A stretch of DNA of 64,000 nt, from contig JAZGTN010000027.1 in NCBI GenBank assembly GCA_037783415.1, positions 3,868,001 through 3,932,000 of the forward strand, written 5' to 3'. The position numbers and the translations under genes are program-made. The DNA comes from Leptasterias polaris. Its lineage: Eukaryota > Echinodermata > Asteroidea > Forcipulatida > Asteriidae. The notes under the pieces are model-generated. The model was not told the origin of the DNA. It saw nothing but the letters and a program-made list of their open reading frames with translations, and made no database searches. Shown one piece after another: positions 4,297 through 25,271 of this stretch (position 1 is the stretch's first letter; every line of letters starts with the position of its first letter).

Positions 4297-5935
4297 CCAT
4301 GATTTTTCGATGACAACTTTTCAAATCAATTGTTGGTGCTTGTTCCAGACGTTATAGTAAATTCGCACACGGGCTTTATTTATTCAATTGTTTAATTAGT
4401 TGGGCTGAGTTAATTAGTAGGTTAATTAAGTGGGGCGCCTAGGCATGTTGGTTTGGGATAATGAAGACAACTGGGAAGAAAAAAGTGGAGATTTAATGAT
4501 TTTTCGATGACAACTTTTCAAATGAAAATTGGGTAGCAGCGTGTTTATTTCTAAACTTGTTACAGAAAATTCGCATACGGGCTATATTATGCAAATGTTT
4601 AATTAGTTGGGCTGAGTTAATTAGTCAGTAAATTAATTGGGGGCGCCTAGGCATGATGGTTTAGGATATAATGAAGACAACTGTGAAGATTTTAAGTGAC
4701 AACTTTTCAAATGAAAATTAGGTAGTTGCTCGTTTATTTCTAGACTTTGTCACAGTAAATTCGCATACGGGCTGTATTATGCGATTGTATAACCCTGGGT
4801 CCCAAGGGTCCCATTAAATCGCCTTCTGGTGACTTTCGCCTCATTGGAAGGCACTTTTAATTACAGGGCAGTTAAGTATGTTTGGGGGTGATTATGGAGG
4901 TCGAAAAGTGGACATCTGCTTTCCAGCTTTCCAATTATGAAAAAACGGATTGAACGTTTTATTCTGGAGCATTTTTCTACTTTTCTGCTTTTTGTCCCCC
5001 TGAAAAGTATAGATTGAACATTTTTGTAGTAACCGGCATTTTTCTACTTTTTTACTTTTCAGTGTCGATGAAAGCAGGTTTTACTTAATCGCCTACACTT
5101 ACGGTCGAAAAGTGGACACTTGTCTTTTGGGTTTCCTAGAAGCAGAAAAGCAGGTTGAACGTTTTAGATAAATCTATTTGTCTACTTTTCTGCTAGCCAG
5201 AAAGCAGATCGGACGTTTTGTCACACAGTGGCACAAAAACGGACATCTACTTTTACTGGTTTCCTACAACCTGAAAAGCTCGGGACCATTTCACCTTTCT
5301 GCTTTCCTGCTTCCCAGAAAGTGGATCGAACGTTTTTTTAACAGAGGTTTGAACGTGGACATCTGTTTAACGCACCACCCCCCCCCCCCAACACATAAAA
5401 TACATTTTAATGTACTCCCCTGTTATAAGAATGCACGACTCCACGGCCAATGCGTGTCACTGACACGTACGGACGTGTCAAAGGCACATATTTGTACAAA
5501 AATTGTTTTTTGTCAATTGATCCTCAAAGCACGGAGGATAGTCGGAATTAAGGTCGATTATGTTTTACAATTTTTATTATGGCTTTATGGGTATGGTATT
5601 TGGGAATAATTATAAACTCTTTGATATTCAAACATTAAGTCTAAACACAAAACATTTAGAAACGCCGTGGGAACCGTTGGTAAACTGCTTTATAATCAAT
5701 AATGTTTCTTCATGTTTCGACATTTTCGACCAATATTTTGAGTAATTTTTTTATGAAAATGGTGACCCCCCCCAAAAAAAAAAAAAATCGTCGGACGATG
5801 ACAAACAAACATGGTGGACTTGTTGATGTCAATTATTTACTGGGTTAATTATGGGTTAATTAATTGGGGGCGCCTATAGGCATGATGGTTTGGGATATAA
5901 GGAAGGCATCTGTGAAGAAAAAAAAAAATTATGAT
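4297..5935 (+). repeat. Transposon-end block, copy 1 (subterminal repeats)
   Basis: Starts with ~200-bp subrepeats, each opening GATTTTTCGATGACAACTTT (near 4300 and 4497, with a shorter one near 4700). From about 4890 it passes into degenerate ~75-bp motifs built on a GAAAGC-GATYGAACGTTTT core next to TTTCTACTTTTCTGCT. The second half (4900-5845) is repeated as reverse complement at 7640-8575. The first ~1.05 kb recurs at 5937-7000. Open frames at 5178-5609 and 5560-5745 are by-products of the repeats. I read this as one terminal arm of a DNA transposon. Confidence 0.65.
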
Positions 5936-5936
5936 T

Positions 5937-7090
5937 TTTCGATGACAACTTTTCAAATCAATTGTTGGTGCTTGTTCCAGACGTTATAGTAAATTCGCAC
6001 ACGGGCTTTATTTATTCAATTGTTTAATTAGTTGGGCTGAGTTAATTAGTAGGTTAATTAAGTGGGGCGCCTAGGCATGTTGGTTTGGGATAATGAAGAC
6101 AACTGGGAAGAAAAAAGTGGAGATTTAATGATTTTTCGATGACAACTTTTCAAATGAAAATTGGGTAGCAGCGTGTTTATTTCTAAACTTTGTTACAGAA
6201 AATTCGCATACGGGCTATATTATGCAAATGTTTAATTAGTTGGGCTGAGTTAATTAGTCAGTAAATTAATTGGGGGCGCCTAGGCATGATGGTTTAGGAT
6301 ATAATGAAGACAACTGTGAAGAAAAACGTGAAGATTTTAAGTGACAACTTTTCAAATGAAAATTAGGTAGTTGCTCGTTTATTTCTAGACTTTGTCACAG
6401 TAAATTCGCATACGGGCTGTATTATGCGATTGTATAACCCTGGGTCCCAAGGGTCCCATTAAATCGCCTTCTGGTGACTTTCGCCTCATTGGAAGGCACT
6501 TTTAATTACAGGGCAGTTAAGTATGTTTGGGGGTGATTATGGAGGTCGAAAAGTGGACATCTGCTTTCCAGCTTTCCAATTATGAAAAAACGGATTGAAC
6601 GTTTTATTCTGGAGCATTTTTCTACTTTTCTGCTTTTTGTCCCCCTGAAAAGTATAGATTGAACATTTTTGTAGTAACCATTTTTCTACTTTTTTACTTT
6701 TCAGTTTCGATGAAAGCAGGTTTTACTTAATCGCCTACACTTACGGTCGAAAAGTGGACACTTGTCTTTTGGGTTTCCTAGAAGCAGAAAAGCAGGTTGA
6801 ACGTTTTAGATAAATCTATTTGTCTACTTTTCTGCTAGCCAGAAAGCAGATCGGACGTTTTGTCACACAGTGGCACAAAAACGGACATCTACTTTTACTG
6901 GTTCCCAACAACCTGAAAAGCCGATCGTACGCTAGGGACCATTTCACTTTTCTGCTTTTCTGCTTCCCAGAAAGTGGATCGAACGTTTTTTTTTCCAACA
7001 GATGCTTCGGACTATAAAGAGAAAGAACCGCGGGAAGAAAATTGTAGAACACCCCCTCCTTTAGTGGACGAGCCCTACAAATAAGCGAAT
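5937..7090 (+). repeat. Transposon-end block, copy 2
   Basis: Direct copy of 4297-5340. It starts with the same GATGACAACTTTTCAAAT subrepeat and runs through the same AAGCAGATCGGACGTTTT-type motifs. Near 6990 it leaves copy 1 and enters sequence shared with 8760-8850, ending in AAGCGAATGGCGGCG. At 7090 it joins the 5' region of the third gene, whereas the equivalent block ending at 8850 leads into the integrase gene. Confidence 0.65.
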
Positions 7091-7560
7091 GGCGGCGCGA
7101 ACCGGCTAGAGACGAAGCGCCCACAGTTAGTTCAGCAAGGCCGGCCGCAAATCAACAGGAATAGGAAAGTTCACGAAACTAAAATAATTTTCTTCTGTGA
7201 AGCCGCCAAGCTTTTTGGGAGTCGCAGGTCGCTAGCACCTTGCGTTTTGGATGACTAAATTCATTCTCATTCTCTACGTTTCAACAATAGCACAATATGA
7301 AAGAAATAAACTAGACCTATAGCGGCAAATTCTGTGTTCCCGGCGTTTTAATGAAACGACAACAACTCATTCATGTTTTGCCAGGGATTTGTTTTTGGAC
7401 TTTTACGGACAGAGCACTGTTTCGTTTGCAGTCAAAATACACATGGATCCAGGCAGGCTGCTTAATGAAATAGCAAGAACTTTGACGTCCTCAAAATACT
7501 ACTATCGACATATTTCTGATGACAATAAGTGTCTCAAGGTTGTACTTACTTCTCAAATCA
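7090..7560 (+). pseudogene. 5' end of a third gene of the element, copy 1
   Basis: About 430 bp in direct repeat with 22840-23275. In both copies an ATG (7443 here, 23201 there) opens a reading frame MDP(G/D)RLLNEIARTLT followed by SKYYYRH. This copy continues ISDDNKCLKVV before running into unrelated sequence near 7560. The upstream ~350 bp is also conserved (GAGACGAAGCGCCC, GTTTTGCCAGGGATTTG), which suggests a promoter and 5' UTR. I do not recognise the protein. Here the piece sits directly behind a transposon-end block, so it is probably what remains after an internal deletion. Confidence 0.5.
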
Positions 7561-7639
7561 GTGAGAGGGCGAAGCCCCCCCCCCCCCACCCGAAAATCAA
7601 ATGTAGAAAAGCCGTGTAAAAAAACGTCAACCAGAATAG

Positions 7640-8575
7640 ATAATTGACATCAACAAGTCCACCATGTTTGTTTGTCATCGTCCGACGATTTTTTATGTTT
7701 TTTTTGGGGGGGTCACCATTTTCATAAAAAAATTACTCAAAATATTGGTCGAAAATGTCGAAACATGAAGAAACATTTTGATTATAAAGCAGTTTACCAA
7801 CGGTTCCCACGGCGTTTCTAAATGTTTTGTGTTTAGACTTAATGTTTGAATATCAAAGAGTTTATAATTATTCCCAAATACCATACCCATAAAGCCATAA
7901 TAAAAATTGTAAAACATAATCGACCTTAATTCCGACTATCCTCCGTGCTTTGAGGATCAATTGACAAAAAAACAATTTTTGTACAAATATGTGCCTTTGA
8001 CACGTCCGTACGTGTCAGTGACACGCATTGGCCGTGGAGTCGTGCATTCTTATAACAGGGGAGTACTACAATGTATTTTATGTGTTGGTGCGTTAAACAG
8101 ATGTCCACTTTCAAACCTCTGTTAAAAAAACGTTCGATCCACTTTCTGGGAAGCAGGAAAGCAGAAAAGTGAAATGGTCCCGAGCGTACGGTCGGCTTTT
8201 CAGGTTGTAGGAAACCAGTAAAAGTAGATGTCCGCTTTTGTGCCACTGTGTGACAAAACGTCCGATCTGCTTTCTGGCTAGCAGAAAAGTAGAAAAATAG
8301 ATTTATCTAAAACGTTCAACCTGCTTTTCTGCTTCTAGGAAACCCAAAAGACAAGTGTCCACTTTTCGACCGTAAGTGTAGGCGAATAAGTAAAACCTGC
8401 TTTCATCGAAACTGAAAAGTAAAAAAGTCGAAAAATGGTTACTACAAAAATGTTCAATCTACTTTTCAGGGGGACAAAAAGCAGAAAAGTAGAAAAATGC
8501 TCCAGAATAAAACGTTCAATCCGTTTTTTCATAATTGGAAAGCTGGAAAGCAGATGTCCACTTTTCGACCTCCAT
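7640..8575 (-). repeat. Transposon-end block, inverted copy
   Basis: Reverse complement of 4900-5845, including the frame near 7693-7917 that matches 5560-5745 in the opposite direction. With 5937-7090 it forms a pair of inverted arms around the gene fragment at 7090-7560, as expected for the two ends of one short deletion-derived element. It stops abruptly near 8575, where a plus-oriented partial copy of the same repeat begins. Confidence 0.65.
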
Positions 8576-8584
8576 AGTTTTAGA

Positions 8585-8850
8585 GAAATCCATTTTTCTA
8601 CTTTTCTGCTAGCCAGAAAGCAGATCGGACGTTTTGTCACACAGTGGCACAAAAGCGGACATCTGCTTTACTGGTTTCCAACAACCCGAAAAGCCGATCG
8701 TACGCTAAGGACCATTTCACTTTTCTGCTTTCATGCTTCCCAGAAAGTGGATCGAACGTCTGCTTCAGGACTAAAGAAAATGACAATATTGTAGGACACC
8801 CCACCCCCTCCTCTCTATGGACGAGCCCGATAAAATAAGCGAATGGCGGC
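8585..8850 (+). repeat. Truncated transposon-end block upstream of the integrase gene
   Basis: Plus-oriented copy of the inner part of the arm (6815-7090), with the same AGCAGATCGGACGTTTT and GTGGATCGAACGT motifs. It ends in AAGCGAATGGCGGCGC and runs into the 5' region of the integrase gene. This is probably what is left of the left terminus of the gene-carrying copy. Confidence 0.55.
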
Positions 8851-9120
8851 GCAGCGCACACACCACCAGCGCACACATGCACTAAGGGCATGCACGCGCT
8901 GACCCTGCCTGCCTGATGCATAATCGTACGTGTTTTTTTAAAACTTCTTGTCGGTTATCATTGACGTCGACGTCGACGGCTGACTGCTGATTGTAAACAA
9001 TCACATTGTTGCGCAAACGTGTCTTTTGCAGTTCCAGCAATTGTATGTTTTGAAGTTGGGTATAGATCATTGGGCTCCAAAGCGGTTAACCTGTAGGACA
9101 GTATTACTGCCTACTGAAGT
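8851..9120 (+). promoter_or_regulatory. Presumed 5' region of the integrase gene
   Basis: Lies between the truncated terminal repeat and the first ATG at 9121. It holds a CG-rich perfect palindrome GACGTCGACGTC at 8963-8974, which contains CRE-like GACGTC half sites. No TATA box is evident. Assignment as promoter is by position only. Confidence 0.3.
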
Positions 9121-12100
9121 ATGGATGGACTCGGCCATCAACTCTTGCAGGACATTAGAGAGGCAGTTTATCGTGGAAAGTCATATGCAGATATTTCTCG
9201 ATCATTACGACATAGGTTTCCCAATACAAGGGGCCTATCAGTAAAAAGTGTCCGTCGTTATTGTAAACTTATGGACATATCCCAAATCAGCAATAATGAC
9301 TTAGACCGTGTAATCCACCAGAGTGCATTTTGCAGGTAAGTTGTTGACCCGAATAATTTTGTGGTAGAATTCCGTATCCAACTGCCAATTTTAATTCACC
9401 AAGAAATGAAATACTATCCTTCCTAGGGCTCCCTTCCTAGTAGTAATATACTGTAACGGACATTGCAACCGCCGGACAAACCGCCGGCGTGAGAACGCTC
9501 TCTCTCCAGAGATTGGACCGGAAGTATGGACTATAAATAGACAGTTGTGTTCGCGCCGGCGGGAAAACGTTGGCCAGGAGCCAAGATAACTGACTCTGTG
9601 CATTGTGCATGTATTGTGCATGATAAGTTGTGTTAGACAGACCAGATGTTGAGTTCAGTGAGTGAGCATGAACAAGTTGTCGTTCTTGGAAGATAAATAA
9701 ATTGGTGTGTTTCACATTTAACCGAATTTGAGTTTCCGTTTGTTTTCTGTCTGCGTTTGGCTGCAGAGCAAACAAGGACCCGTTGGCAGTACGTTACAAT
9801 GGTGGCAGCGGTGGGATATGTTTGACTCAATTAAATGTTGAACACGACTGAAATATGACGACGAGGTACACATCATCGGCTGATATCGTGGACGCCATCT
9901 TCGGATTAATGAGTGACATTCGGGAGTTGGAAGCCTCCTTGGCACGGCAGATTTTTGAGTCAGCTATTTCCTCACCTGAGTATGGAAAGAATCCTTGGGA
10001 CACGAAACCAGTCGTTGATGCGTACCACAGAAGATGCTTCGAGAAAACGATTGCCAACTTGGAAGCGACGTGGAGTAGTGGTGACTTAGCCATCAGTGAG
10101 GATCAGAGTGCAGGTAAATGCCACGCAAACCCGTCCCGCGGTCCCGTGGCTGGCGCCGATGTTGGGCTTTGTTGTGTGGATGCGGAGACCACAAGTAGGG
10201 AGGCCGTTGCGAGCGGTGAATGCCCTACTGTTGATGTGGTCCCGAGTCCCTCGATCTTGCCCTGCATGGCGTTTGCCGTTGGGATTGCGGTTCGTGGTTG
10301 CGATGGGTTTTCCAGCCCTGATCCAGCTGCTTTGTCCCTCAACTCCACGTCAACACCTCCACCGTTGTGGAAGGCTTCAACAACGCACACTGTTCCATCG
10401 TTGTGGACGGCTCCGCCAGTGCAACTTGCCTCGCCGGAGCACGCTGCTCTCATCATCAACCAACAAACTGACAGGACAAAGACTATGACATTGAACAATC
10501 AACTCCAGGACACTGGCGTTGGCCTTCATGTGCAGGTGACGGCAGCTCAGCTGGAGCGGCAATTTCCACCAGCAAAAGCAGCCCCACCGGAACAAGCAAG
10601 AGCACCGACGGACCCCCGGATGCATGATGATGAAGGATACGGATGATGCAGGACGCATCGCAGATGACAAGGCCGAGGGTACAGGAAGTACCACCGAAGA
10701 CAGGATACCTGTTGGTGCGGGGAGCATCAACGGCTGGGTATCCGCCAGTGCATGATGCACCACTGAAGAAGGCCGCTGAAGACAGAGTATCCGCAGGTGC
10801 TGGATGCACCAAAGACAGAGTGACTACCGGTGCTGGGGGCACCACAAACATGGGACCCGCGGGCACAACAGACGGGGGACCCGCCGGCACCACAGACAGG
10901 GGATCCGCCGGCACCAACGACAGGGGATCTGCCGGCACCAAGGACAGCGGAGGATCCGCCGGCACCACGGACAGGGGATCCGCCAGGGGAAGCACCGAAC
11001 AGAATATGTCAAGTGTTCGACTGCATGGCCTGAGTCATCGGCTGAAGACACTGAAGCTAGAAGAGCACATCATTAACAATGACTGGAGAGAAGTCCTCTC
11101 TTGGATGGACATTGTTTTGTTGTTGTTAAATAAAGAAATGCGGTTGTGGGTCTCACCGCCGATTGTTGTATCTTTGGTGGATTCTGGGTCACCAAATTGG
11201 GGACCAGAATCAACATTGATCATCATTCCCGGGGAAACTCCAACCAGTTACAAGTAAAACCTGTTGAACTATGTTAATCACCTGCCTATCCAGGAGTATA
11301 GGCTAAACTAAGGAGGGAGTGATGTAACGGACATTGCAACCGCCGGACAAACCGCCGGCGTGAGAACGCTCTCTCTCCAGAGATTGGACCGGAAGTATGG
11401 ACTATAAATAGACAGTTGTGTTCGCGCCGGCGGGAAAACGTTGGCCAGGAGCCAAGATAACTGACTCTGTGCATTGTGCATGTATTGTGCATGATAAGTT
11501 GTGTTAGACAGACCAGATGTTGAGTTCAGTGAGTGAGCATGAACAAGTTGTCGTTCTTGGAAGATAAATAAATTGGTGTGTTTCACATTTAACCGAATTT
11601 GAGTTTCCGTTTGTTTTCTGTCTGCGTTTGGCTGCAGAGCAAACAAGGACCCGTTGGCAGTACGTTACAATACTATTATTATTAAATTAAATAGTCTGGG
11701 AATTAGCAGGAGGGATCACCTTTTGTAAGGGGATGATGCCTTTTATTTTATACATAAAGTTAGACACAGTAACCGGGTCGCTGTTACTCCTTTTTATTAC
11801 TTTTATTTAAGTTGACATCTGCAAAGTAGTATCAAACCCAAATTCACAACTAGACCTTAGTACTGATGATGTCACAGTTTCTTGGAAATGCAGTTTCCAG
11901 TTAAAGTACTTAGGTAATGCAGTAAACAAATCATGATTAGATAATGCCATATCACATCAAATTCTTCTCATTTGGTCAATTATTGTAGTTGCAATTTTGT
12001 ATTCTCGATGCTAAAAAAAAATTACAATGACAGTCACAATCATTACAGTCAGTAATTATGGTTATTCATGGCTAAAACTTAAAGACATCTCTATGTGTAT

Positions 12101-14728
12101 TATAATTTTTATGAGAATTCTTGCCTTTATCAGTGAGAGAAATTTTAAAACATTGATGATGATAGTTTCTATGCACCTGTCAAAATATTACTGACAATAT
12201 TAGTTTATTTAAAAAAACTGCTGTCTTTTCATCTTGCAGGTTGGTCCTCTTTATGGAAGAAGGATGATGGGGGGATACCTAAGAGCGCAAGGAATAGCTG
12301 TTAGTCATGACAGAGTAAAAAGATCACTTCAGAGACTGGATCCTAGAAACTATGAAATCAGGCGCACCGATGCAGGTGACCGGACAAATCCTAGACTTTA
12401 CACAGCAAACTACTATGGCCACAAAATCCACATGGATCAGAATGAAAAGATTGCCATGTATGGTGTAACACACGTCTGTGCAAGAGATGGTTACAGTGGC
12501 AGAATCGTCGACCTGATTACCATCCCTTGTAAATGCAACTTCAAAATTGTTGAAGAACTGTTCAGGTAAGTTTGAAATTAACAAGTTGTTAGATCTTACA
12601 AAATCTCAATGGTATCTTTTAACTAACTAATTCCAATTAATATATATATATTTTGTTTCATTCAGTGTCGCTAAGGAAAGTTTATAACAGACTACAGGAA
12701 AATAGCTAATATAAATCATTTTTTATAACAAATCAAAGTTATATGTATTATTGTTAACGCTAGAAGAAAGCTTACTTTTTTCCCTTTTATTAAAAAAATC
12801 ATTGTTATCCTTGTCTTTGAATTTTGATTATTGATCATAGCTGCACAAAAGCTTCCTGTATTTTAATATTTAATAAAAGAAGTGCTGTTTACAAGTTGAA
12901 GAAGTTCTAGGCCCACTAGGGTTAACAAAATAAGACGGTTATTGGTTTTGTGCATATTTTCTTGCCAACCATCAGTTTATGTACATTGTTCTACAGGCCA
13001 TTGTTGTTGCGAGAAGGTGTATGGACCCAACTCCGTGTTGACCAAGGAACTGAATTTGTGTTAGCAACCTTCATTCAAGACTGTCTTGCAAGACATCGTC
13101 CAGAGCAGAATTGCCCTCCCTGGGTTGCAACATCATCAGTGCACGTGAGTGTTTTGGTAGCTAATTTTGGATTGAACAAAAAAAAATTGAAAAGAGCGGA
13201 TTTGATCCTGCGACCTCCAGATTAACATAGGCTTCAGAAGTAAATTGTAATGTGGCACGCTGAGTGGAAAAAATATGGATGAAAATAAAAGAATTTCTGG
13301 GCGCAGAGTGCATTTATGAGGCCTGATTTATTTTTGGCCTGAAAAGTTTTGAATTTGAATGTTAAAAACATTAAATGAAAAAAAATACATAGGCCTATTT
13401 AGTTTGAACCCCCAAACAAGCCGAAATTGGTATTGAAAAAGGAGAAAGAAAAACACTTGGATCCAAACTCAAACAAACTGTTGCCATGGTAGCAGCTGAC
13501 CCTGATAAGAAATATTTGTTTCTTAATTTGACCTAGATGAATATTGGGGAAAAGTCGGTTAATTGTGATACAATGATCAGATGTAGCTTCAAACAGTTAA
13601 GGGCAAAAATATGTAAGTTGCTACCCCCCCCCCCCCCCCCCCCCGTCCTGATAGGGTTAAAAACAAATAAAACAGTGTACATTTTGTGCATCACTTCTAA
13701 ATAAACATCTTTACTACTAATTTTACTTCAGAACCTGCGCATTGAACGGATCTGGCCAGAAGTTAACCAACGAGTAAATTATCCATTGAAGCGCATAGTA
13801 GTCACTATGCATGAACAAGGAATGATTCACATGCAAGATGATGTAGAGAAGTTCTGTGTCTCCATGGTTCTCATTCAAGTGGCTAAGATTGGAACTCGCC
13901 GATTTGTATTAAGCTGGAACAACCATAATATGAAAGGTAAATGTACATCGGTATAGAAAATAATGATGATAGAATAGTGTACATTTATAATGTCGACATG
14001 CCTGTCATAAATGACACTCCTGGCACCAAATTATCCAATTATGTGGATCCCTGTGAAGAATGATTTTAAAGCAACCATAAAAACAAGAGGTGTTCGTGCT
14101 TGTATTGCACAAACACCTAATTATGGTGTTCAATATCTGCCATCTCGTGTCAGGTAATTTGATACACTGTGTTTATTTACATTGATGTATTCTGCCCAGG
14201 CGGTTACAAGGTGGGGTGGTGCATATTGTTGCTAGACCATGCAATAAACACCAGTGGCATGCTTACACTTCCCAAAACTAAATTTCCATATATTTGTCTG
14301 ACACTTGGATGTATTAAATGGAATAGACACTCACCTGTGTCTAAAATGATGGTTTACTACCCCCCACTAAAATAATGAATACATAAAGGTGTATAACATG
14401 TTACGCTCTCTTATTTACAGTGTCTGTTGGTCGACCAGGTGCAACTGGAACACCTGAACAGTGTTATCAGCGAAATAATCAAGCTGCATCTATCAGACAT
14501 ATTCATGTTCCGACCACAGAAGAACTTATTAACCTGTATCAACAAAATGGAGGGCGAATTGAAAGCTCGGGTAAATTTGGCTGGGACCCTCTCGGCGAAG
14601 ACATTCAGCTTGTAGAGGAGCGTCAACAAAGATTGGACCGCAACTTCCCATCATATGAGCAATGTTTCAATGCTGCTGTGCACGGTGTCCAGCAACCGCT
14701 TCAACAACTCATTGTTGGTGAAATGTAA
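9121..14728 (+). CDS. IS3-like DDE integrase/transposase gene, five exons
   Basis: Exon 1 is 9121-9335 (ATG at 9121). Exons 2-5 are 12240-12565, 12997-13144, 13732-13936 and 14421-14728 (TAA), all with AG/GT borders. Exons 2-5 join in frame. Exon 1 encodes a helix-turn-helix-like N-terminus (SYADISRSLRHRFP). Exon 2 opens with VGPLYGRRMMGGYLRAQGI, like the HTH_21 region of IS3 OrfB proteins. The rve fold shows D in HMDQN (exon 2), D in RVDQG (exon 3) and E in NLRIERIWPEVN (exon 4), spaced D-57-D-38-E, as in IS3 and retroviral integrases. The C-terminus has SWNNHN and a PLGED segment. The catalytic triad is intact, so the enzyme may be active. Exon 1 ends in phase 2 but exon 2 begins in phase 0, so an exon is missing from view or a one-base error exists. 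A domesticated integrase gene is an alternative. Confidence 0.8.
9452..9798 (+). repeat. 5' LTR
   Basis: TG...CA ends. A TATA box TATAAATA lies at 9532-9539 and a polyadenylation signal AATAAA at 9696-9701, giving the U3-R-U5 order expected of a functional LTR. Matches 11323-11669 over the whole length. Confidence 0.93.
9532..9539 (+). promoter_or_regulatory. TATA box of the LTR
   Basis: TATAAATA, placed about 160 bp before the AATAAA of the same LTR. The 3' LTR carries the same box. Confidence 0.6.
9800..9817 (+). other. Primer-binding site, tRNA-Leu type
   Basis: TGGTGGCAGCGGTGGGAT, one base after the 5' LTR. Its complement ends in CCCACCGCTGCCACCA, which I recognise as the 3' end of animal tRNA-Leu(AAG) with its CCA. 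The gag element at 49364 uses a similar site. Confidence 0.8.
9855..10646 (+). CDS. LTR element ORF1, 263 aa, unrecognised
   Basis: First ORF after the primer site. The N-terminal ~80 residues look globular and helical (DIVDAIFGLMSDIRELEASL). The remainder is low in structure and rich in P, S and T. No gag, zinc-knuckle or enzyme motif is visible. It overlaps ORF2 by ATGA (stop 10644-10646, ATG 10643-10645), an arrangement typical of coupled re-initiation. It may be a gag remnant or a specific protein of this family. ORFs on the opposite strand here are shadows. Confidence 0.5.
   Translation: MTTRYTSSADIVDAIFGLMSDIRELEASLARQIFESAISSPEYGKNPWDTKPVVDAYHRRCFEKTIANLEATWSSGDLAISEDQSAGKCHANPSRGPVAGADVGLCCVDAETTSREAVASGECPTVDVVPSPSILPCMAFAVGIAVRGCDGFSSPDPAALSLNSTSTPPPLWKASTTHTVPSLWTAPPVQLASPEHAALIINQQTDRTKTMTLNNQLQDTGVGLHVQVTAAQLERQFPPAKAAPPEQARAPTDPRMHDDEGYG
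10643..11257 (+). CDS. LTR element ORF2, 204 aa, repeat protein
   Basis: Overlaps ORF1 by four bases. Residues ~70-115 are 24-bp tandem repeats encoding units like AGTTDRGS (10855-10990). After this comes a helical segment (LHGLSHRLKTLKLEEHIINN) and a hydrophobic stretch (IVLLLLNKEM). No polymerase, protease or integrase motif. Function unknown. It may be expressed by re-initiation after ORF1, or it may be a chance open frame in a repeat. Confidence 0.4.
   Translation: MMQDASQMTRPRVQEVPPKTGYLLVRGASTAGYPPVHDAPLKKAAEDRVSAGAGCTKDRVTTGAGGTTNMGPAGTTDGGPAGTTDRGSAGTNDRGSAGTKDSGGSAGTTDRGSARGSTEQNMSSVRLHGLSHRLKTLKLEEHIINNDWREVLSWMDIVLLLLNKEMRLWVSPPIVVSLVDSGSPNWGPESTLIIIPGETPTSYK
11306..11322 (+). other. 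Polypurine tract
   Basis: AACTAAGGAGGGAGTGA immediately before the 3' LTR, where plus-strand priming is expected. Confidence 0.65.
11323..11669 (+). repeat. 3' LTR
   Basis: Same length and, by reading, the same sequence as 9452-9798, followed by the ATAC target duplication. Confidence 0.93.
11670..12239 (+). other. Remainder of integrase intron 1
   Basis: AT-rich sequence ending in a polypyrimidine tract and TTGCAG at 12239. No open frame or repeat recognised. It would have to hold any missing exon that repairs the exon 1/exon 2 phase. Confidence 0.5.
13622..13644. repeat. Poly-C run in intron 3
   Basis: About 21 C residues in the intron between 13144 and 13732. Likely unstable in replication and in sequencing. 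Confidence 0.85.
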
Positions 14729-14740
14729 TTAACTCTATAC

Positions 14741-15815
14741 TATGGTGTTCCATATGTGCCACTCCTTTCCGTCGCCTTTTCAATTTTGTCCGTCGCCTTT
14801 TCAATTTTTCCATCGTGGGTCCACGTGACTACCAGGTGATTATCACATGACTCCAAAGGAAATTCGACCTTTGGGAGGCATACCGCTGTTGCCAAAATGT
14901 ATACGTTGCTTCATCCACAGTCGAGACCAGATAGCTATGGGGCGCCGTTTGTCAATTAGTTGTTTAGCGTATTTTTGACGTGTTTTTACCATGGTTTGTA
15001 ATAATTAGATGTAAACCATAGAAAGTGCTGTCAATTTATTTTGTGGTTTACATACAATCAAAGTTTATAAATTATGGTTTATAAACCATGAAAATTGAAG
15101 CTTCATAAAACATGGTTTATAAACCATAACAAACGTGTGTTCACAAATCATGTTTATAAACCATGATTTGTAAACCATGTTTTGATGCTTAAATTTGTAT
15201 GGTTTATAAACCATGTTTTGAAGGCGCTTAAATTTTCATGGTTTATAAACCATGTTTTGAAGGTGCTTAAATGTTCATGGTTTATAAACCATGATTTGTA
15301 AACCATATGTTTTATGATGCTTAAATTGTTATGGTTTATAAACCATGTTTTATGATGATTAAATTTTCATGGTTTATAAACCATAATTTATAAGCTTTGA
15401 TTGTAAATTTATGGTATGTAAACCACAAAATAAATTGACAGCACTTTCTATGGTTTACATCTAATTATTACAAACCATGGTAAAAACACGTCAAAAATAC
15501 GCTAAACAATTAATTGACAAACGGCGCCCCATAGCTATCTGGTCTCGACTGTGGATGAAGCAACGTATACATTTTGGCAACAGCGGTATGCCTCCCAAAG
15601 GTCGAATTTCCTTTGGAGTCATGTGATAATCACCTGGTAGTCACGTGGACCCACGATGAAAAAAATGAAAAGGCGACGGACAAAATTGAAAAGGCGACGG
15701 AAAAGAATTGACTAAGGCGACGGACAAAAATTGAAAAGGCGACGGAAAAAATTGAAAAGGCGACGGACAAAATTGAAAAGGCGACGGAAAGGAGTGGCAC
15801 ATATGGAACACCATA
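14741..15815. mobile_element. Foldback (palindromic) element, 1,075 bp
   Basis: The two ends are long inverted copies (about 14741-15050 against 15420-15815) opening TATGGTGTTCCATATGTGCC. The 6-bp flank CTATAC is present on both sides (14735-14740 and 15816-15821). The arms contain a minisatellite based on CCGTCGCCTTTTCAATTTT, with 2 copies on the left and about 6 on the right. The centre is a set of small palindromes. No coding sequence, so it moves, if at all, with a transposase from elsewhere. It lies 12 bp after the stop codon of the integrase gene and would form a giant hairpin in its 3' UTR. Confidence 0.92.
15060..15400. repeat. Array of ATGGTTTATAAACCAT palindromes
   Basis: The 16-bp perfect palindrome ATGGTTTATAAACCAT and close variants recur at ~45-bp spacing, separated by spacers such as GTTTTGAAGGCGCTTAAATT. 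The array is the loop region of the foldback element and is itself able to form multiple cruciforms. Confidence 0.9.
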
Positions 15816-15821
15816 CTATAC

Positions 15822-16950
15822 TTCAAACCACTTAAAACAGTGATAACACCAGGTTTAACAGTCTTTGATTTACGGTGTCTAAATTATCAGAAAATATGTA
15901 CTCACTTGATCAGCATGCACCCCTCTAATCCTCACATGGCAGTCATATGTATGTTTTTTTTTCTTTGGGTTTTTGTTATCAGGAAAAATACAGCAGACTA
16001 GTTTATAACAAAATATGTTTCGTCTCACTCCACTCCCAAAGCTCAGATTACTGAGAGCTGCCATTTACTCATTTTGTGAACTTTGTAAATTAAAGGGAAA
16101 TGAACATGCTTTAAAAGATAATATTATGCTTCCAATGTTGTCAGTGTTTGTGTCTGTTCCACCCCCAACCACTTTTAAAGTAATTTTACCTATTGATGTT
16201 GTCATTTAACACTGCTCTCCATTACAAATCATTAATACCAAAATTGTGTTGCATCACAGAATTGTTAATGTTGTCAATATTTACGACTTTACTTAAGTAG
16301 CCAACATGCCCCCAACTCTCAATTTGAAAATAATGAAATCCTGTAGCCAGATGCCTAGGTTTTCTATTTGACTGAAAGTGCATTTGACTGTGTATGTGAA
16401 CAATAAATGAGTAATGGCACATGCAGATTTGGTCTAAAAGACTCATTCACTTCCATGAAATTGCTTAATGATTTTGAGGTTCAACAAAATCTGCACCCCA
16501 CCAACCCAGTTCAACTTTGAGCAGTGGGTTGTATTTGAATACAACTACCTTTCAAAATTAAGATGAGCGACAAGCTAATAAAATCCAAAGCAATAACAAG
16601 ATTAAAAAAGCGAGCTAGTCAGTGTAACAATTTATTAATGTTTTTATCAGAAAAAACGAAATGTTTGTTCAAAATATAAAAGCACAAAACCAATAACACA
16701 ATCTGTTGAAATTCTAATTAACACTTAACGGTTTAACAATATCTAAGAACCAAAGACAAATCTTTTTCAGTATGGGAATACTGCAGCAGTACTCTTAAGT
16801 TCTAACAAAATATTAAAGGGGCATGTTGCCTCCAGATCGGGCTATAGCCCGACTCTTCTCAGTATCTCAATGGTTTGGTTTCATTTTGTTTGCTCTATTG
16901 AAAAGTGTAAATAAAATTGAAAAAAATAAATTTCACCCACATCATGAATA
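15822..16950. other. No gene recognised
   Basis: AT-rich sequence with only short open frames. TTAAAGGGGCATGTTGCCTCC at about 16814 resembles the end of the TTAA MITE at 30908, so a remnant may be present. Nothing else identified. Confidence 0.5.
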
Positions 16951-16954
16951 CAGC

Positions 16955-17345
16955 TTTGAAATAAATAAAAAAGTTCCATGAACAACAAAATAAACCCCTT
17001 CTTCAAAACCACTGCTGGTGGTAAAAGAACTTTAAAATGTTCCCCTATTAAATAAAGTAGAACATTACCATACATAATTTTTTTAAACACCTTCTTCAAA
17101 ACCACTACTGGTGGTAACAGAACTTTGCCAGTTTCCCCTCTTAAATCAAACAGAAAATAAACATTCATACAAAATCACCACCTTCTTGTAAACCACGGCT
17201 TGTGGTGAAAGAACTTAACCATTTTCCCCTTCTAAATCATATGCTCAAATCAAGCAGAAAATAAACATTCATACAAAATCACCACCATCTTGTAAACCAC
17301 TGCTTGTGGTGAAAGAACTTCTAACTATTTTTCACTCTTAAGTCA
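16955..17345. repeat. Four ~105-120-bp tandem repeats
   Basis: Units with TTCTTCAAAACCACTGCTGGTGGT or TCTTGTAAACCAC-GCTTGTGGT, then AAAGAACTT and a TTTCCCC-TTAAATCA stretch. Each unit carries an ACCAC-N5-GTGGT dyad. The units have diverged, so the array is old. Confidence 0.75.
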
Positions 17346-17767
17346 AGCAGGCCGCCTCCAAACAGTACCATAAGAGCCTCACCATACACTAAATACTTGG
17401 AGAACCATGCCAGTTGAACAAATAAAAAATAGCCTTACATGATCAAGCTTTAAAAAACCAAGCAACTCACAAACAGCACTGGTTATTATACAAGATAATG
17501 TTCTCACCAATATTTTAAAATAAAACTCACAATCGTGGTATGTTGGGGAGCCCTTAAAGTTGTCCATAGTTTTTAATCAAAATTAAAACCTGAATTTCCT
17601 GTATGGATTGAAGCTTTTTTTTCTACGAAGTGACCCTACCATGTATCCTAATTGATTGATGCAGAGAAATCAGTAAATATTAAAAGTCATCACCTGGAGA
17701 CCGAGTTACAATGCAAGTATGCACACTATTTTAAACATGGATTTAATACCTTGTATATGGCAAACGA

Positions 17768-18055
17768 AGGCAGGGTGTACTTTTGGTAATTACTCCACAA
17801 GTTAATGACCATACAAACATACTTGGTAAAGAGCACTGGAGAGCTGTTGATAATTGTTATAAATGACCCCTTATAATTTGAAACAAAAGAAAAAGTATAG
17901 TTTAAGAGAAAGAAGTAACTTTTCACCAACAAATTTGAATCTGAGAAAGGTTTCAGGCATGGAGCCTTTCTCAGGCGTCTGAAAGTACACATTTTATGCT
18001 ACAAGGGTGTGTTTTTCTTTCATACACCAAGTGATCGGATGCTGGTCTGTGACTA
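17768..18055. repeat. Diverged copy of the 21025-type MITE
   Basis: Contains CTTTTGGTAATTACTC, CATACTTGGTAAAGAGCACTGGAGAGCTGTTGATAATTGT, AAGGGTGT-TTTTTCTTTCAT and CACCAAGTGA in the same order as the piggyBac-like MITE at 21025-21372. The ends and flanking TTAA sites have decayed. Confidence 0.6.
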
Positions 18056-18179
18056 AAAAAAATATACCCTGCCTTTATTTAACAATGGGGGGTGGGGGGG
18101 GGGGGTCATAATATTTGAAGACATCCCAAGGATGGGCCCTGAAGCCTGCACACTGAGACTACCCCCCCCCCCCCAAATA

Positions 18180-18540
18180 ATATATAATAATTTTAACAAA
18201 ATGAAAATTTAATAAATGTAGTGGCCTGTGCATTATTTTTTACTTTATGACCCTTTTATATGACTTGTGATTGTTTGTATTTTTACATGTTCTTACATGT
18301 TACCATTGTACCAGAGAGATGCAGGAAATCTATAATTCCACAACTTGCTCAAATCTTATAGTTTTTATGAAGGGTTTGGTTTAATTTTGTACTTTTTACT
18401 TTAATGCCCTTCAATATGTGATTGTTTATATTTTTTACATGTGCTTATATTTTTATCATTGTTAAGTGACCCTTTCAGCTACTGCTGCTGGTAATTTGGT
18501 TTGTAAATATACCAATAAATAAATAAAAACACTAAAAAAA
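18180..18540 (+). repeat. Possible LINE 3' tail
   Basis: Ends in TTTGGTTTGTAAATATACCA followed by AATAAATAAATAAA, the form of a CR1-like 3' UTR with a short simple repeat tail. No coding part is left. Confidence 0.35.
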
Positions 18541-18870
18541 TTAAAAATTAAAATAAATTATGCAGTTGAGCAAGATGAGTTCTGAATATGCTTAATTTAC
18601 AGCCAAGAATGTTTTAAGTACTGATATTAAGCTTCCAATTCATACACAAAACTGCTTGCAATGATTTTGATTAAATCCAATTTTCAGGGATCCTTGTTAT
18701 CTCAAAACAATAAATAGGCCTATGCATTATGAAATTCCAAGTGTCGACGTCACTTCTTCATATACAATTCAAATAATTTAACTCAAGTTTGTTTTCAAGT
18801 TTTCTGGGCTCCCCAACTACACTGCTTTTTGGGTCGACTTTGACTGATTGCTTATAATATAATAGCTAAT

Positions 18871-19004
18871 GTACGGAGCCCCTAAGGGGACAGGTAAAAA
18901 AATGTGAAAGGTAAAAAAAATATCAAAATTATTTCGTTCCCTCAAAATAGTATTTGTTTTACCTTTTTAACTTCTTAATTACCTGCCCTTTAGGGGCTCC
19001 GTAC
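18871..19004. mobile_element. Short MITE with 4-bp TAAT duplication
   Basis: 134 bp with terminal inverted repeats GTACGGAGCCCCTAA / TTAGGGGCTCCGTAC and inner GGCAGGTAA. TAAT flanks it on both sides (18867-18870 and 19005-19008). Non-coding. It lies downstream of the RING-like gene. Confidence 0.85.
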
Positions 19005-19105
19005 TAATGGAACAAAGTTAAGATTTAAAAAAACTGTTAGGATGGTCGGTTATTGGAAGTACAAAATGCACTTTTAGTTATTTCAAAAGCTTTCTTTTAA
19101 CATAA

Positions 19106-19111
19106 TTTATT
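19106..19111 (-). terminator. Polyadenylation signal overlapping a stop codon
   Basis: On the minus strand the stop TAA (19112-19110) and the signal AATAAA (19111-19106) share bases, so the RING-like gene has almost no 3' UTR before its signal. Confidence 0.6.
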
Positions 19112-22100
19112 AAACACTTGGTAGCTCTATACCAGCAAGTTGAAACACCCCTCGAATTGGAGGCATTTCAACAAACAAACCCATGGGATAATCCTCTGGT
19201 AAGGCTCTACACAACAAACAAGCCTGGTCGTCAGAACATTTGGTGATGCATTTCGAACAGCCTGCAACATTCAAACAGCATCTTGTCACAAAAATTGGTG
19301 GGGTACTCGTGTCAAAACATATTTTGCACTTAAATAGTGTTGCAAGATCATTCTTGATAGATTTTGATCTCGACAACTCTAACACAAGTTCTTCAACCTT
19401 TGAAATTTTGTTGGACAAAGTTTCAAGACTTGTGTGTGCTTGACAGTCTTGCTGTGCTGTTACAGACTCATCTGAGGATGAAGAAGATAACTGGACTGTT
19501 GGAAGGTTTAGTTTCTTTCTCTTGAGGTTCACCCAGTCATTAGTCTTTACAGCCTTTATCTTTCTGTTTGTTCCCCAATATGCTCGTCCTGTGTGAATGA
19601 CAAACAAAATCACGTTAAGGATCTATGAATACTATTTAATGTTTAAAATAATTTCCATACTACATATGATGCCAGTGCAACATATGAAATGGGAACGTTG
19701 CAGATCTCTAGTAAAAAATGCCTTCAGGTTGTTAGCAATAATTCAACTCATTCATCAATTTCAGAAAGATTATAAAAATGCTTTTGGATGATTTGATAAC
19801 CTCTCCATACCGGCTAATTTATGTGACATGCATGATAACGAAACAAAATTGGATTCATACAAATCAATTAATACAACAATATTTCTGAGGATTAAAAATA
19901 AACAGTGCAAGTTTGGCAAGTTTTAAAACTTGTTAACAGGCCAAACATGTGGATACCCAAAATACTTGCATATAGTCTATTTATCTGTATCTATCATTTC
20001 ACAAAAAATCCTTAAGACTACTTTGCCTCTTCTACACCTTTTTAAATTAATAATAATTTTCAGGACACTGATGATTGTATACACAAACATCATCTTGTGA
20101 AACTTTATAGCCTATCGGCTAATACAATTTGGAATGAATAAAACGACAGATTTACAAATTGTGGATATTAATTTTCAATTCTAATTTTAGAGTGAAAAAG
20201 AAAATTTAACTAGAATGAGATTCGAACATGTGACCTCTGATTAACGTGCAGCCTAAGATAAGAGATTAACTGTTATACAAACCTTTCGTAGCAGTTGTCT
20301 TCTCTATTTCTAAACCTTTAGAGTCAAGCAAAGTGATTGCCCCTTCACTCTTTGATGCTTTGAAGTGTTCAGACTCTGCTATCAGCAGCCTTTTTATGAC
20401 ACTGGTCGTGGCATTGTCATCTAATATGAGGGTAGTAGATTTACTCTCACTGAGGAAACCCTTCGAGTTTACTTGGCAGATAGTGAAGTTTTTCGTAAAT
20501 GTACCACGTGGTGCTGGTAGACCCTCAGTACCAGTCACAGATGTCGACGCTGAGGAACCTATACAAAACCATAATGAAACTATATTGGTGAGGATCAGAC
20601 TAAGCAATTTTGTTCTGCTGGTCTGACTATAGCAATGTCCTAAACTGTTTGAAACTCTAAAATGAAATAATGACAACACACTCAAACAGCAAATGGCAGA
20701 TATTTGTTTGCAGCTTGTTTTTTGAGTAGTTGAACCACACTTACTCCTCTCGGCCCAATGCCGGGGTATATGTTAAAATCTTAATGTTGTTACATAACAT
20801 CTGCAATTAGTTCAAACTGTTTGTTTGCTCAAGATGAAGCAATACCATTTTGTTTTCATTTTGTTTTGTTTAGTTATCAAAAAGGGGGTCATTGTCAAGG
20901 CTTTCCTAACACAATGTTATCATTAGGCTTATATAATTATACATATTTTGCTCTAACGTTTAAACATGTCCCAGAGACAAATGCATGTATCACGTATACA
21001 CCACAAGGGAATACTTACACTTAAAGGCACTGTACACGTTTGGTAATTACTCAAAATATATATTAGCATAAAAATTTACTTGGTAACGAGCAACGGAGAG
21101 CTGTTGATAGTATAAAACATTGTGAGAAACGGCTCCCTCTGAAGTAACGTAGGTTTTGAGAAAGAGGTAATTTCTCACTAAAATAATAAAAGACTTCTGT
21201 CCAGAAGCCTTTTATTCCTATCTGAAAGCACACTAATTTGTACAACAAGGGTGTTTTTTCTTTCATCATTTTCTCGCAACTTCAATGACCAGGCTTGTTA
21301 TTTTATGCATATGTTGGGATACACCAAGTGAGAAAACTGGTCTTTGACAATTACAAAATGTGTTCAGTGCCTTTAAAGGCATTGTATACTTTTGGTAACA
21401 GCTCAAAATCAGTGTCCACATTTTGTGTGATTCAACATTTATACATGAACAAACAAACCTGTGAAAGTTTGAGCTCAATTGGTCATCGAGGTCACGAGAA
21501 AATATTGAAAAGAGACCTTATGTGTTTTCTGTTTTTCAAACATCGAGTTTATTATCGCGCGAGATAAAAACTATTGTTTTACTCATTTCGATCTTACCAA
21601 TAGTGTACAGGGCCTTTAAGTTAAAGTTACAAACGAATCCCAATGGGACCACTTGGTTATGATGAGGAAAGGAGTGGTAAGCTTAACATAGACATGTTTT
21701 TCAATATAGAGAAAAGGAGACTAAAAAACGGTCTCAAATGGAACATCAGATAGTTTACATTTTATTTTGAAGGAATTTTATTTTATTTTATTTTTGTCCA
21801 CAACAAAATAATGACATAAATACACCAATTACTGGATGGCTCAAAATATTATTGTCATTGAGTGAAAGTTATGAAAGATAAATACTTGACAAATTGCAAT
21901 CAATTTTGGAAATTAAATGCACAAATCAAATCAAAATAAGAACTAAAAAGTTTTGGGAAAAGAAGGGACCATACTTAGTCATAATCAAAACCCATCATTA
22001 GATCACGCAATCAGTGGGGCAGGTGCCAACGGTCATACATTGACAATGACAGCAAATTAACAAGTTGCAGGGAAATAGGGTAAAAATGATATTTTTTATT

Positions 22101-22528
22101 TGTCATTTGCCATTGAAAGTGTGAAAAGAGTGGCGATTGACACGTTGAATAAAGCTATGTAACATTATAACTACATTTCTATACATACCTGGGTATTGGG
22201 TAGTTGATGAGGATCTTGCCATCGAGTCATGGCCTATCCGTGATTTATGCTGGCCACGGCGGCGTTTTGAAGGCCCTTCACGATCTCCCGCTGTCGCACC
22301 GGTGATGCTTGCTAAGTAAAACGGGTTACTCATCTTGTCCGTAGTCGCCGGCATGTCATCGCCCGTGATCTTCCAGGTGAGAAAACTATCCAGAGAGGGG
22401 AATCCCCCTCTTTCGTCGGGTACTACAACCGAATCATCTGACCCATACAGAACGATGGTTTCGGGGAAAATTTTGAAAATTTTCCCGAGGGTTACACTTT
22501 TCATTTGTGAAGATTTTAACTTTAGCAT
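19110..22528 (-). CDS. RING-like Cys-rich protein gene, three exons
   Basis: Exons on the minus strand are 22528-22189, 20558-20283 and 19588-19110, with AG/GT borders and matching phases (phase 1 at both joins). Together they encode about 364 aa from the first in-frame ATG (22528). An upstream exon may add a few residues, since the frame stays open to 22570. The N-terminus (LGKIFKIFPETIVLYGSDDS) is a compact domain I do not recognise. It is followed by a basic RRRGQHKSR, a possible nuclear signal. The last exon has an amphipathic helix (LSNKISKVEELVLELSR) and eight cysteines: CKIC, CC, CSKC and CLLC. This pattern suggests a RING/U-box-like E3 or DNA-binding zinc fold. The gene is convergent with the integrase gene and flanked by the same repeats, so I infer it is a second gene of the same large transposon. 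Confidence 0.7.
21025..21372. mobile_element. PiggyBac-like MITE, copy 1
   Basis: Ends AGGCACTGTACAC... and ...TGTTCAGTGCCT are inverted, and TTAA lies on each side (21021-21024 and 21373-21376), the insertion mark of piggyBac transposases. Inside intron 1 of the RING-like gene. The family is familiar to me from echinoderm genomes. Confidence 0.85.
21377..21615. mobile_element. PiggyBac-like MITE, copy 2, abutting copy 1
   Basis: AGGCATTGTATAC... to ...GTACAGGGCCT, then TTAA at 21616-21619. Shares the middle TTAA with copy 1 and is shorter inside. Either a second insertion into the TTAA of the first or an internal duplication. Confidence 0.8.
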
Positions 22529-22839
22529 ACGACCCCCTTCATTGAGCCCCTGTACCAATGATGGTTTATGGAATCAGTAACAAAATCATCTTCACTATCC
22601 ATGATGATGGCAAATATGTGTCCTACTCAGTCGATGGTTCATAGGAAGAATGACACCCGTTGTCAAAATAAAACAAGTCTTATGGGTTCATTGCCCACCT
22701 CGCTCACCTCATCCCCCCCCCGAAAAAAATAAATAAAAAATGTATCAATTTGAATAAACAAGCTTCGGAAACAATTTAACTGAACAACTATGTCGGCTCC
22801 AACAAAGCCGGCCCGCGTCCACTAAAACTAGTTCGGGCG
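22529..22839. promoter_or_regulatory. Presumed shared promoter region
   Basis: Lies between the divergent RING-like gene (-) and the third-gene 5' region (+). A second ATG frame on the minus strand (near 22604, MDSEDDFVTDSINHHW) closes quickly and could be a 5' exon or an upstream ORF. The part near 22800-22840 is GC-rich. Confidence 0.3.
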
Positions 22840-23275
22840 GCTATAGAGACGAAGCGCCCAGTTCAGCACGGCCGCCGGCCGCCAACAAACAAAGTTACAA
22901 AAAATACATATCTTCAGTGAAGCCGCCAAGCTTTGCTTTTTGGTGGTGGGGGGGGGGGGGGGGGGGGGTGGGGGTTGCAGTTCGCTAGCAATGTGAGTTT
23001 GAATGATTACAGTCATTCTCATTCTCTACGTTTCAACAAAATCATAGCACAATATGAAAGAAATCTAAAATAACTATAGCGGCAAATTATGTGTTCCGTT
23101 TTAACGAAACGACAACTCACTCATGTTTTGCCAGGGATTTGTTTTTGGACTTTTACGGACAGAGCAAGTTTCGTTCGCTGGAGCAGCAGTCAAAATACAC
23201 ATGGATCCAGACAGGCTGCTTAATGAAATAGCAAGAACTTTGACGACCTCAAAATACTACTATCGACATTGACAA
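22840..23275 (+). pseudogene. 5' end of the third gene, copy 2
   Basis: Direct repeat of 7090-7530. It includes the same upstream sequence, interrupted by a G run (22946-22968), and the ATG at 23201 with MDPDRLLNEIARTLT then SKYYYRH. It is cut off at about 23275, where the LINE-containing duplicated segment begins. Short homology (GAGAGCAAACAAG) lies at the junction. The rest of the gene is not in the window. Confidence 0.5.
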
Positions 23276-23288
23276 TATTTCTGAGAGC

Positions 23289-24420: not shown

Positions 24421-24439
24421 CACTGACAATCATGGTTGA

Positions 24440-25271
24440 CATCTCGAATGACTAGTGAATCGACTGCTATAAATGACAGACTCATGACCATGACAGCAGT
24501 TCTTCAATCTGGCAAAAGTGTGACTTTCAGCAGTGTTTATGCATCAACAATGCAGAGACGAGATGATGAAAAAGAATCCTTCATATGAAGTTAATCGCAC
24601 CATCTCTAAGACCAAAGGTAAAATGATTGTGATTGCAGACTTCACATGAGTTGGAAAAGAATGAGTAGTTTGGCCTTGTGTATTTGGCAGATATGGTGTA
24701 GGAAAGATGAATTCTAACAGCCTGCTACTGCTAATACCCAATCGAAGCTGACTGTCAATGGGATAATGTTTAGATTGAAAAACAAGTTTAACGAGAACAT
24801 GGCAGCTTATGAGATCCAGGCAATGACACCAGATAGATCACATCCTTGCGAATGCCGGCCGATGCGCTCAAAAACATTTGCGTCACTCGCATGCTTCGGA
24901 GTGCAAACTGCTTCACAGATCATAGGCTGCTTTAATATCACAAGGTCCAGATTTTCCACTATACGTGACCAACAGGTTCAGCTCATCAACTTACAAAATA
25001 CGACACAGCTATATAAACCCTCAACTTGACAGAGCTGAACTACGAAGTCGAATCCATGACCTAAAAACAACTGGTTCCAAGACAGAGCAGACAAAGTTGA
25101 GAAGTTTGCACAGAGGAAAAACTATCGCGACTTCTACACATCACTCAACATGATATATGGTCCAAGTTCTCATCCCATCATGACCACTGATGGCAAGCTT
25201 TCGACCTCCCCCAGAGACCTCAAAGCCAGATTGATGGAACATTTTTCTACTCTTCTAAACCAACCTGATAT
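24440..25271 (+). pseudogene. Second decayed LINE, endonuclease part (copy 1)
   Basis: Pieces such as DRLMTMTAVLQSGKSVTFSS and MIYGPSSHPIMTTDGKLSTS followed by HFSTLLNQP match the endonuclease and linker of APE-type LINEs. Many stops. Continues after the inserted CR1/L2 element at 29145. Confidence 0.65.

What the first reader, a model, noticed from the sequence alone, without database searches (positions are those of the whole stretch)
4297..23275. Candidate large eukaryotic IS3-like transposon with three genes
A spliced integrase gene with an IS3 OrfB-like N-terminal motif and an intact D-57-D-38-E triad lies convergent to a spliced RING-like gene. Next to them are two copies of a third gene's 5' end and blocks of subterminal repeats. 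The arrangement suggests a mobile unit encoding its own transposase and accessory proteins, rather than host genes. An IS3-like superfamily (IS3EU) has been described in eukaryotes. Whether this is a member, and whether the RING-like and third proteins are known parts of it, I cannot check.
Basis: partly seen in the sequence, partly recalled or inferred. Interest (0 to 1): 0.82.

Follow-up and report, generated by a model that had tools for sequence, protein, structure and literature searches.

The report
Sea-star transposon with RING-like helper gene
This is a 16 to 18 kb jumping gene of the IS3-like kind, probably in a sea star, that carries its own transposase plus a second gene resembling ubiquitin-pathway proteins; the copy read here has been broken by a rearrangement.

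Summary
A near-identical copy 0.3 Mb away is 16,068 bp, TATGG...CCATA, with ~450-bp inverted repeats (94.9%). A diverged copy (17,854 bp; transposase 67%, second protein 51% identical) has the same two convergent genes, the same kind of ends and a perfect 6-bp target duplication. Nine short relatives share the termini; six of nine have perfect 6-bp duplications. The transposase is an rva_4 integrase with a conserved D-57-D-38-E triad.

The second gene (three exons, 364 aa) occurs at six genomic places: four in element copies, two as fragments. It shows signs of purifying selection. Its middle domain is predicted ubiquitin-like; its C-terminus is Cys-rich and RING-like, below Pfam's cut-off. 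The two database relatives found are a Patiria miniata protein, apparently on the same scaffold as that species' closest transposase, and one ENA fragment.

The 'third gene' is not supported: it is right-end sequence, seen twice because a 2-kb deletion derivative lies beside the main copy. The window copy has lost its right end, best explained by a ~31-kb inversion. I propose, without proof, that the second protein is a ubiquitin-pathway helper.

The parts
9121..9335 (+). transposase exon 1 (N-terminal part); 2 nt out of phase with exon 2 in this copy and in copy 2
   Evidence: tblastn and splice inspection; same exon 49% identical (aa) and in phase in copy 4
12240..12565 (+). transposase exon 2, first catalytic D
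   Evidence: Pfam rva_4 on joined exons 2-5, E 1.2e-18
12997..13144 (+). transposase exon 3, second catalytic D
13732..13936 (+). transposase exon 4, catalytic E
14421..14728 (+). transposase exon 5 with stop codon
22189..22528 (-). accessory gene exon 1 (start codon uncertain; the Patiria protein begins 31 residues earlier)
   Evidence: 47% identical (aa) in copy 4
20283..20558 (-). accessory gene exon 2; encodes most of the predicted ubiquitin-like domain
   Evidence: 60% identical (aa) in copy 4
19110..19588 (-). accessory gene exon 3; rest of the ubiquitin-like domain, a likely helix, RING-like Cys-rich end, stop codon
   Evidence: weak RING matches
8577..23284 (+). main body of the element: starts inside the left terminal repeat, right end missing after 23284
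   Evidence: 99.5% identical to copy 2 over 14,756 columns
4893..5839 (.). terminal-repeat segment beginning TATGG; matches the right end in inverted orientation
5840..6537 (.). second copy of the left flanking DNA
6538..8576 (+). 2,039-bp short derivative, TATGG...CCATA, holding one copy of the supposed third gene
   Evidence: a short element on C6 has the same length from its two terminal-repeat matches
9452..11671 (.). LTR-retrotransposon-like insertion in intron 1, two LTR copies identical over 349 bp; also in copy 2
14736..15820 (.). palindromic insertion between the two genes; also in copy 2

Best explanation
The region is a large cut-and-paste DNA transposon of the IS3EU superfamily. 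Its transposase should bind the roughly 450-bp terminal inverted repeats, cut at TATGG/CCATA and insert with a 6-bp staggered cut (ends and duplications are shown; the enzymology is inferred from DDE transposases). The convergent second gene belongs to the element. It encodes a protein with a predicted ubiquitin-like domain and a RING-like Cys-rich end. Its most likely role (inferred) is that of an E3-type or ubiquitin-mimicking helper that shields the element from host silencing or tunes transposase level. Short derivatives keep the ends and are presumably moved in trans. The window copy is broken: its right end was most likely carried off by an inversion of about 31 kb, its left end is duplicated and rearranged, and exon 1 of its transposase is out of phase.
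For: Four places with strong transposase matches and six with the accessory gene. Copy 2 has both inverted ends, 16,068 bp. Copy 4, diverged, has the same two convergent genes, inverted ends (91.1% over 459 columns) and 6-bp duplication CCATAG. Nine short copies: 6 of 9 perfect 6-bp duplications, 1 of 9 at 5 of 6, 1 of 9 a 7-bp match, 1 of 9 none. Termini fit the published TA..TA and TAYGG..CCRTA (passages of PMC10045372, and PMC12730594). rva_4 E 1.2e-18 and triad. Accessory gene: third-position excess 136/92/220 over 338 codons between window and copy 4; 3 of 1092 exon against 70 of 5150 non-coding substitutions, window against copy 5 (p 0.00095); relatives in Patiria on contigs of the same length.
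Against: No comparison with Repbase was possible. The window locus and copy 2 have no clean duplication (copy 2 none; window flank GGTGAT against GCTGAC at the displaced end, 4 of 6). The RING match is below Pfam's cut-off and lacks a conserved His. The structural model is poor outside residues 145-245, and Foldseek itself gave no match at E <= 0.001. Window against copy 2 shows no difference between exons (1 of 1092) and non-coding DNA (11 of 6346). The accessory frame is broken by small gaps in copies 2 and 5. Ubiquitin-pathway activity is untested.
Confidence: 0.9

Rival explanations
1. Same transposon, but the second protein is a non-catalytic transposition subunit: the Cys-rich end and the beta-grasp domain bind DNA or transposase and help pair the long, repeat-rich ends, with no ubiquitin-pathway activity.
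For: RING-like end without a conserved His and below Pfam's cut-off; a basic stretch between the domains is visible in the sequence; long subterminal repeats.
Against: The best, weak, sequence matches are RING domains of E3 ligases (RNF146, SIAH1), and the middle domain is predicted ubiquitin-like.
Confidence: 0.35
2. Same transposon, but the second gene is a passenger captured from the host and needed for nothing in transposition.
For: Transposons of other lineages carry captured genes, such as fungal TET genes (passages of PMC12730594); the gene evolves faster than the transposase (51% against 67% identity).
Against: It is kept in the same place and orientation in two copies that differ by a third to a half in protein sequence, with signs of selection. 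The six loci found in this genome are element copies or fragments; no intact host gene was seen.
Confidence: 0.15
3. Separate host genes (a domesticated integrase and a RING gene) next to unrelated repeats.
For: Both genes are spliced with several introns, and the window copy has no intact pair of ends.
Against: Several copies in the genome; a complete copy with both genes, inverted ends and a duplication; a dispersed terminal repeat.
Confidence: 0.02

Closest known systems
IS3EU superfamily of eukaryotic DNA transposons (Repbase; with GingerRoot not separated from it in PMC10045372)
   Same: Integrase-type DDE transposase, TA..TA termini, 6-bp duplications, inverted repeats (passages; own results)
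   Different: Size of 16-18 kb, long terminal repeats of about 450 bp, and the accessory gene; no description of this gene was met in the searches made
TET+ IS3EU families of rust fungi (PMC12730594)
   Same: TAYGG..CCRTA ends, TIR over 30 bp, 6-bp duplications, and a second gene (alpha-kinase) opposite in orientation to the transposase (passages)
   Different: Accessory proteins are alpha-kinase and TET/JBP dioxygenase there, a ubiquitin-like plus RING-like protein here; no sequence comparison made
Uncharacterised integrase-core (rva_4, PF24764) proteins of fish, cnidarians, annelid and sponge
   Same: Same protein family; 59 hits, 55 of them with PF24764 listed; 35-53% identical beyond Patiria
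   Different: Window, copy 4 and Patiria sequences form their own group (98/99); neighbouring genes of the others could not be read
Ginger1/Ginger2 transposons (PMC2836005, listing and start of abstract only)
   Same: Cut-and-paste elements with an integrase-like transposase; that Ginger1 can carry Ulp1/OTU protease parts is recalled
   Different: PMC10045372 places IS3EU apart from Ginger1/2 (passages)
Host proteins with a ubiquitin-like domain and a RING (for example UHRF1, or the RING1B C-terminal domain; recalled)
   Same: Combination of the two domain types; RING1B/RYBP complex chains (3ixs) are among the Foldseek rows
   Different: No sequence relationship shown; domain order and flanks differ

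Membership tests
IS3EU | TA..TA termini, TAYGG..CCRTA | tested here: met
   TATGG..CCATA in copy 2, copy 4 and 9 of 9 short copies examined
IS3EU | 6-bp target site duplication | tested here: met
   Copy 4 CCATAG; 6 of 9 short copies perfect, 1 at 5 of 6, 1 with 7 bp, 1 none. Copy 2 and the window locus have no clean duplication
IS3EU | Terminal inverted repeats over 30 bp | tested here: met
   450 columns at 94.9% (copy 2); 459 columns at 91.1% (copy 4)
IS3EU | Integrase-type DDE transposase | tested here: met
   rva_4 E 1.2e-18; D-57-D-38-E
IS3EU | No HHCC zinc motif before the catalytic core | tested here: inconclusive
   No Pfam match in exon 1 and no such motif apparent in the copy 4 N-terminus by eye; no dedicated search made
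IS3EU | Transposase groups with Repbase IS3EU entries in a tree | not testable with these tools
   Repbase is not held
RING finger (Pfam zf-C3HC4_3) | Score above the curated cut-off | tested here: not met
   16.4 bits against 27 (window exon 3); 16.1 for Patiria. I therefore say RING-like
RING finger | Cys/His ligand spacing | tested here: inconclusive
   Nine Cys invariant in three proteins, C-x2-C ... CC-x5-C-x2-C-x3-C ... C-x2-C; no conserved His
Ubiquitin-like (beta-grasp) domain | Fold similar to ubiquitin | tested here: met

The most novel reading that the evidence does not exclude
Echinoderm IS3EU transposons carry a dedicated ubiquitin-like plus RING-like protein, a previously undescribed transposon-borne E3-type factor, kept under selection because it disarms host silencing or controls the transposase, in the role that fungal IS3EU elements may give to an alpha-kinase or a TET dioxygenase.
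Probability: 0.3. Interest if true: 0.75.

Novelty: new variant of a known kind. Interest (0 to 1): 0.5.

Why it matters
Here a second gene is tied to an IS3EU-type element in two diverged copies of one genome and, by scaffold length, probably in a second species, and it shows signs of selection. If it is a ubiquitin-pathway factor, it would be a compact, testable case of a DNA transposon carrying its own interface with host regulation, beside the TET dioxygenases and alpha-kinases reported for fungal IS3EU elements (passages of PMC12730594).

Tried and rejected
Third gene: no match inside copy 4 with a 23-aa query, open only for a short stretch. I read it as non-coding right-end sequence or a dead exon. 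A genome search with it did not complete.

Host-gene reading: rejected on copy number, ends and duplications.

Clean target duplication at the window locus: not found (4 of 6); copy 2 none. Beside the displaced right end there are about 120 bp that copy 2 lacks, so later change at the junctions is likely.

Accessory genes near other rva_4 integrases of this genome: two 9-kb stretches read, no second gene recognised. Only open frames of 100 aa or more were listed, so spliced genes could be missed.

N-terminal part of the accessory protein: the model is too weak to use (mean pLDDT 43.4); its strand-strand-helix order could hint at a second beta-grasp, a guess.

dN/dS: saturated. NG86 gave 0.22 for accessory exon 3 and 0.06 for the joined transposase exons; for the joined accessory gene dS was undefined; YN00 failed except for one transposase exon.

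Phage records: no tblastn match for the Patiria accessory protein.

Abundance of the copy-4 type terminal repeat: not completed.

Left-end duplication 4893-8576: no single-step origin found; unexplained.

Literature: eight searches gave, in the listings and in passages of two papers, no description of an IS3EU element with a RING or ubiquitin-like gene. Repbase and most subscription journals were not searchable, so this does not prove novelty.

Full report
WHAT IS THERE. The window is C27:3868001-3932000 of an unnamed 629.7-Mb genome in 334 contigs. The closest protein relatives found for both genes are from the sea star Patiria miniata, so the host is probably a sea star (inference; not tested with host genes). 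On the + strand there are five transposase exons (9121-14728) and on the - strand, convergent, three exons of a second gene (22528-19110). The joined transposase exons 2-5 match Pfam rva_4 (integrase core), E 1.2e-18, and HTH_21 below cut-off. The D-57-D-38-E triad is conserved: 57 of 57, 59 of 59 and 58 of 59 rows with a letter at those columns (61 rows aligned).

IT IS MOBILE. A genome search with the transposase gave 37 matches. Fifteen are strong and lie at four places: the window, C27:3.58 Mb (copy 2), C58:5.62 Mb (copy 3) and C58:3.15 Mb (copy 4). The other 22 are distant, 23-31% identical. Exon 3 of the second gene gave six places: the window, copy 2, copy 4, C58:3.73 Mb (copy 5, with one recognised end), and two fragments, C58:48 kb (97.9-99.4% to copy 4 over exons 2-3 and intron sequence) and C216 (exon 3 with stops; no other element sequence recognised). 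Copy 2 is a complete element of 16,068 bp, TATGG..CCATA, with inverted repeats 94.9% alike over 450 columns. Copy 4 is a diverged element of 17,854 bp with both genes in the same order and orientation (exon identities 49-85% for the transposase and 47-60% for the second protein; 67% and 51% overall), inverted repeats 91.1% alike over 459 columns, and CCATAG directly outside both ends. Copy 3 is a fragment matching 13021-17748.

TERMINAL REPEAT FAMILY. A 142-bp piece of the terminus gave 46 matches, a lower bound (197 candidates, 40 scored). From these rows I took the nine pairs outside the window that face each other on one contig within 3 kb (339-2,536 bp apart, end to end) and read their flanks. 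Nine of nine end in TATGG/CCATA. Six of nine have a perfect 6-bp duplication (CCATAG, CTTACG, CTTTTG, ATACAT, CAAAAC, CCTAAC), one agrees at 5 of 6, one shows a 7-bp match and one none. Back-to-back, same-strand and unpaired rows were not used. The chance of six or more perfect 6-mers among nine is about 2e-20 under equal base use.

THE WINDOW COPY IS BROKEN. The body 8577-23284 is 99.5% identical to copy 2. At 23284 the match stops. A matching right end lies at C27:3859469-3860523, inverted, about 7.5-8.5 kb before the window's first base, beside the same right flank as copy 2 (99.2%); the two breakpoints agree within a few bases (c2r 23532 and 23537). One inversion of about 31 kb is the simplest explanation (inference). 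The left side carries a segment matching the right end in inverted orientation (4893-5839), a second copy of the left flank (5840-6537) and a 2,039-bp derivative (6538-8576). The order of events on the left is unexplained. The window copy and copy 2 also share about 4.5 kb of left flank at 99% and two nested insertions, so they probably arose by segmental duplication, not by two insertions. Neither has a clean duplication (copy 2 none; window locus GGTGAT/GCTGAC, 4 of 6). Exon 1 of the transposase is out of phase in both.

HOW IT LIKELY WORKS. Shown: ends, duplications, two-gene linkage, signs of selection. Inferred: DDE cut-and-paste; mobilisation of short derivatives in trans; a helper role of the second protein in the ubiquitin pathway. 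A non-catalytic transposition subunit is the main rival.

COMPARISON. PMC10045372 (passages) gives IS3EU as TA..TA termini with usually 6-bp duplications. PMC12730594 (passages) gives, for TET+ families of rust fungi, TAYGG..CCRTA, inverted repeats over 30 bp and 6-bp duplications, with transposase and alpha-kinase genes in opposite orientations. The features that could be tested for termini, duplication, repeats and transposase type are met; a comparison with Repbase was not possible. What differs is the accessory gene. In a tree of 26 transposases chosen from 61 plus two other integrases of this genome, the window, copy 4 and Patiria sequences form one group (98/99); the two others are far away.

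VERDICT. The reading as an IS3EU-type transposon with an accessory RING-like gene is right; the third gene is not supported. The element is a new variant of a known kind. The open point is what the second protein does.

Noticed in passing
window 9452-11671: LTR-retrotransposon-like insertion with two LTR copies identical over 349 bp and a short internal part inside intron 1 of the transposase gene; shared with copy 2.
   Followed up: partly
window 14736-15820: Palindromic element of about 1.1 kb with nested inverted and direct repeats between the two genes, shared with copy 2; copies 3 and 5 also match over this stretch.
   Followed up: partly
target duplications of copy 4 and six short copies: Six of seven perfect 6-bp duplications start with C and six of seven end in G or C, with mostly A/T between; two unrelated loci share CCATAG. 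Possibly a target preference.
   Followed up: no
C58:3140001-3170000 (L015-L017), joined coordinates 19317-25129: A 5.8-kb insertion with identical 361-bp direct end repeats (LTR-like) in the second-gene intron of copy 4; the C58:48-kb fragment lacks it.
   Followed up: partly
window 34367-35913: Inverted copy, 99.1% identical, of part of the left flanking DNA (window 402 onward), so the flank itself is repeated.
   Followed up: no
window 23291-23500 and 41385-41594; open frames 23645-24369 (+) and 25649-26338 (-): A 210-bp repeat at 99.5% right after the break at 23284; the open frames look like pieces of non-LTR reverse transcriptases by eye (not searched).
   Followed up: no
L031 and L032 (C36:444001-453000, C58:7192001-7201000): A second, distant lineage of single-exon rva_4-like integrases (424 and 429 aa open frames) in the same genome.
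   Followed up: partly
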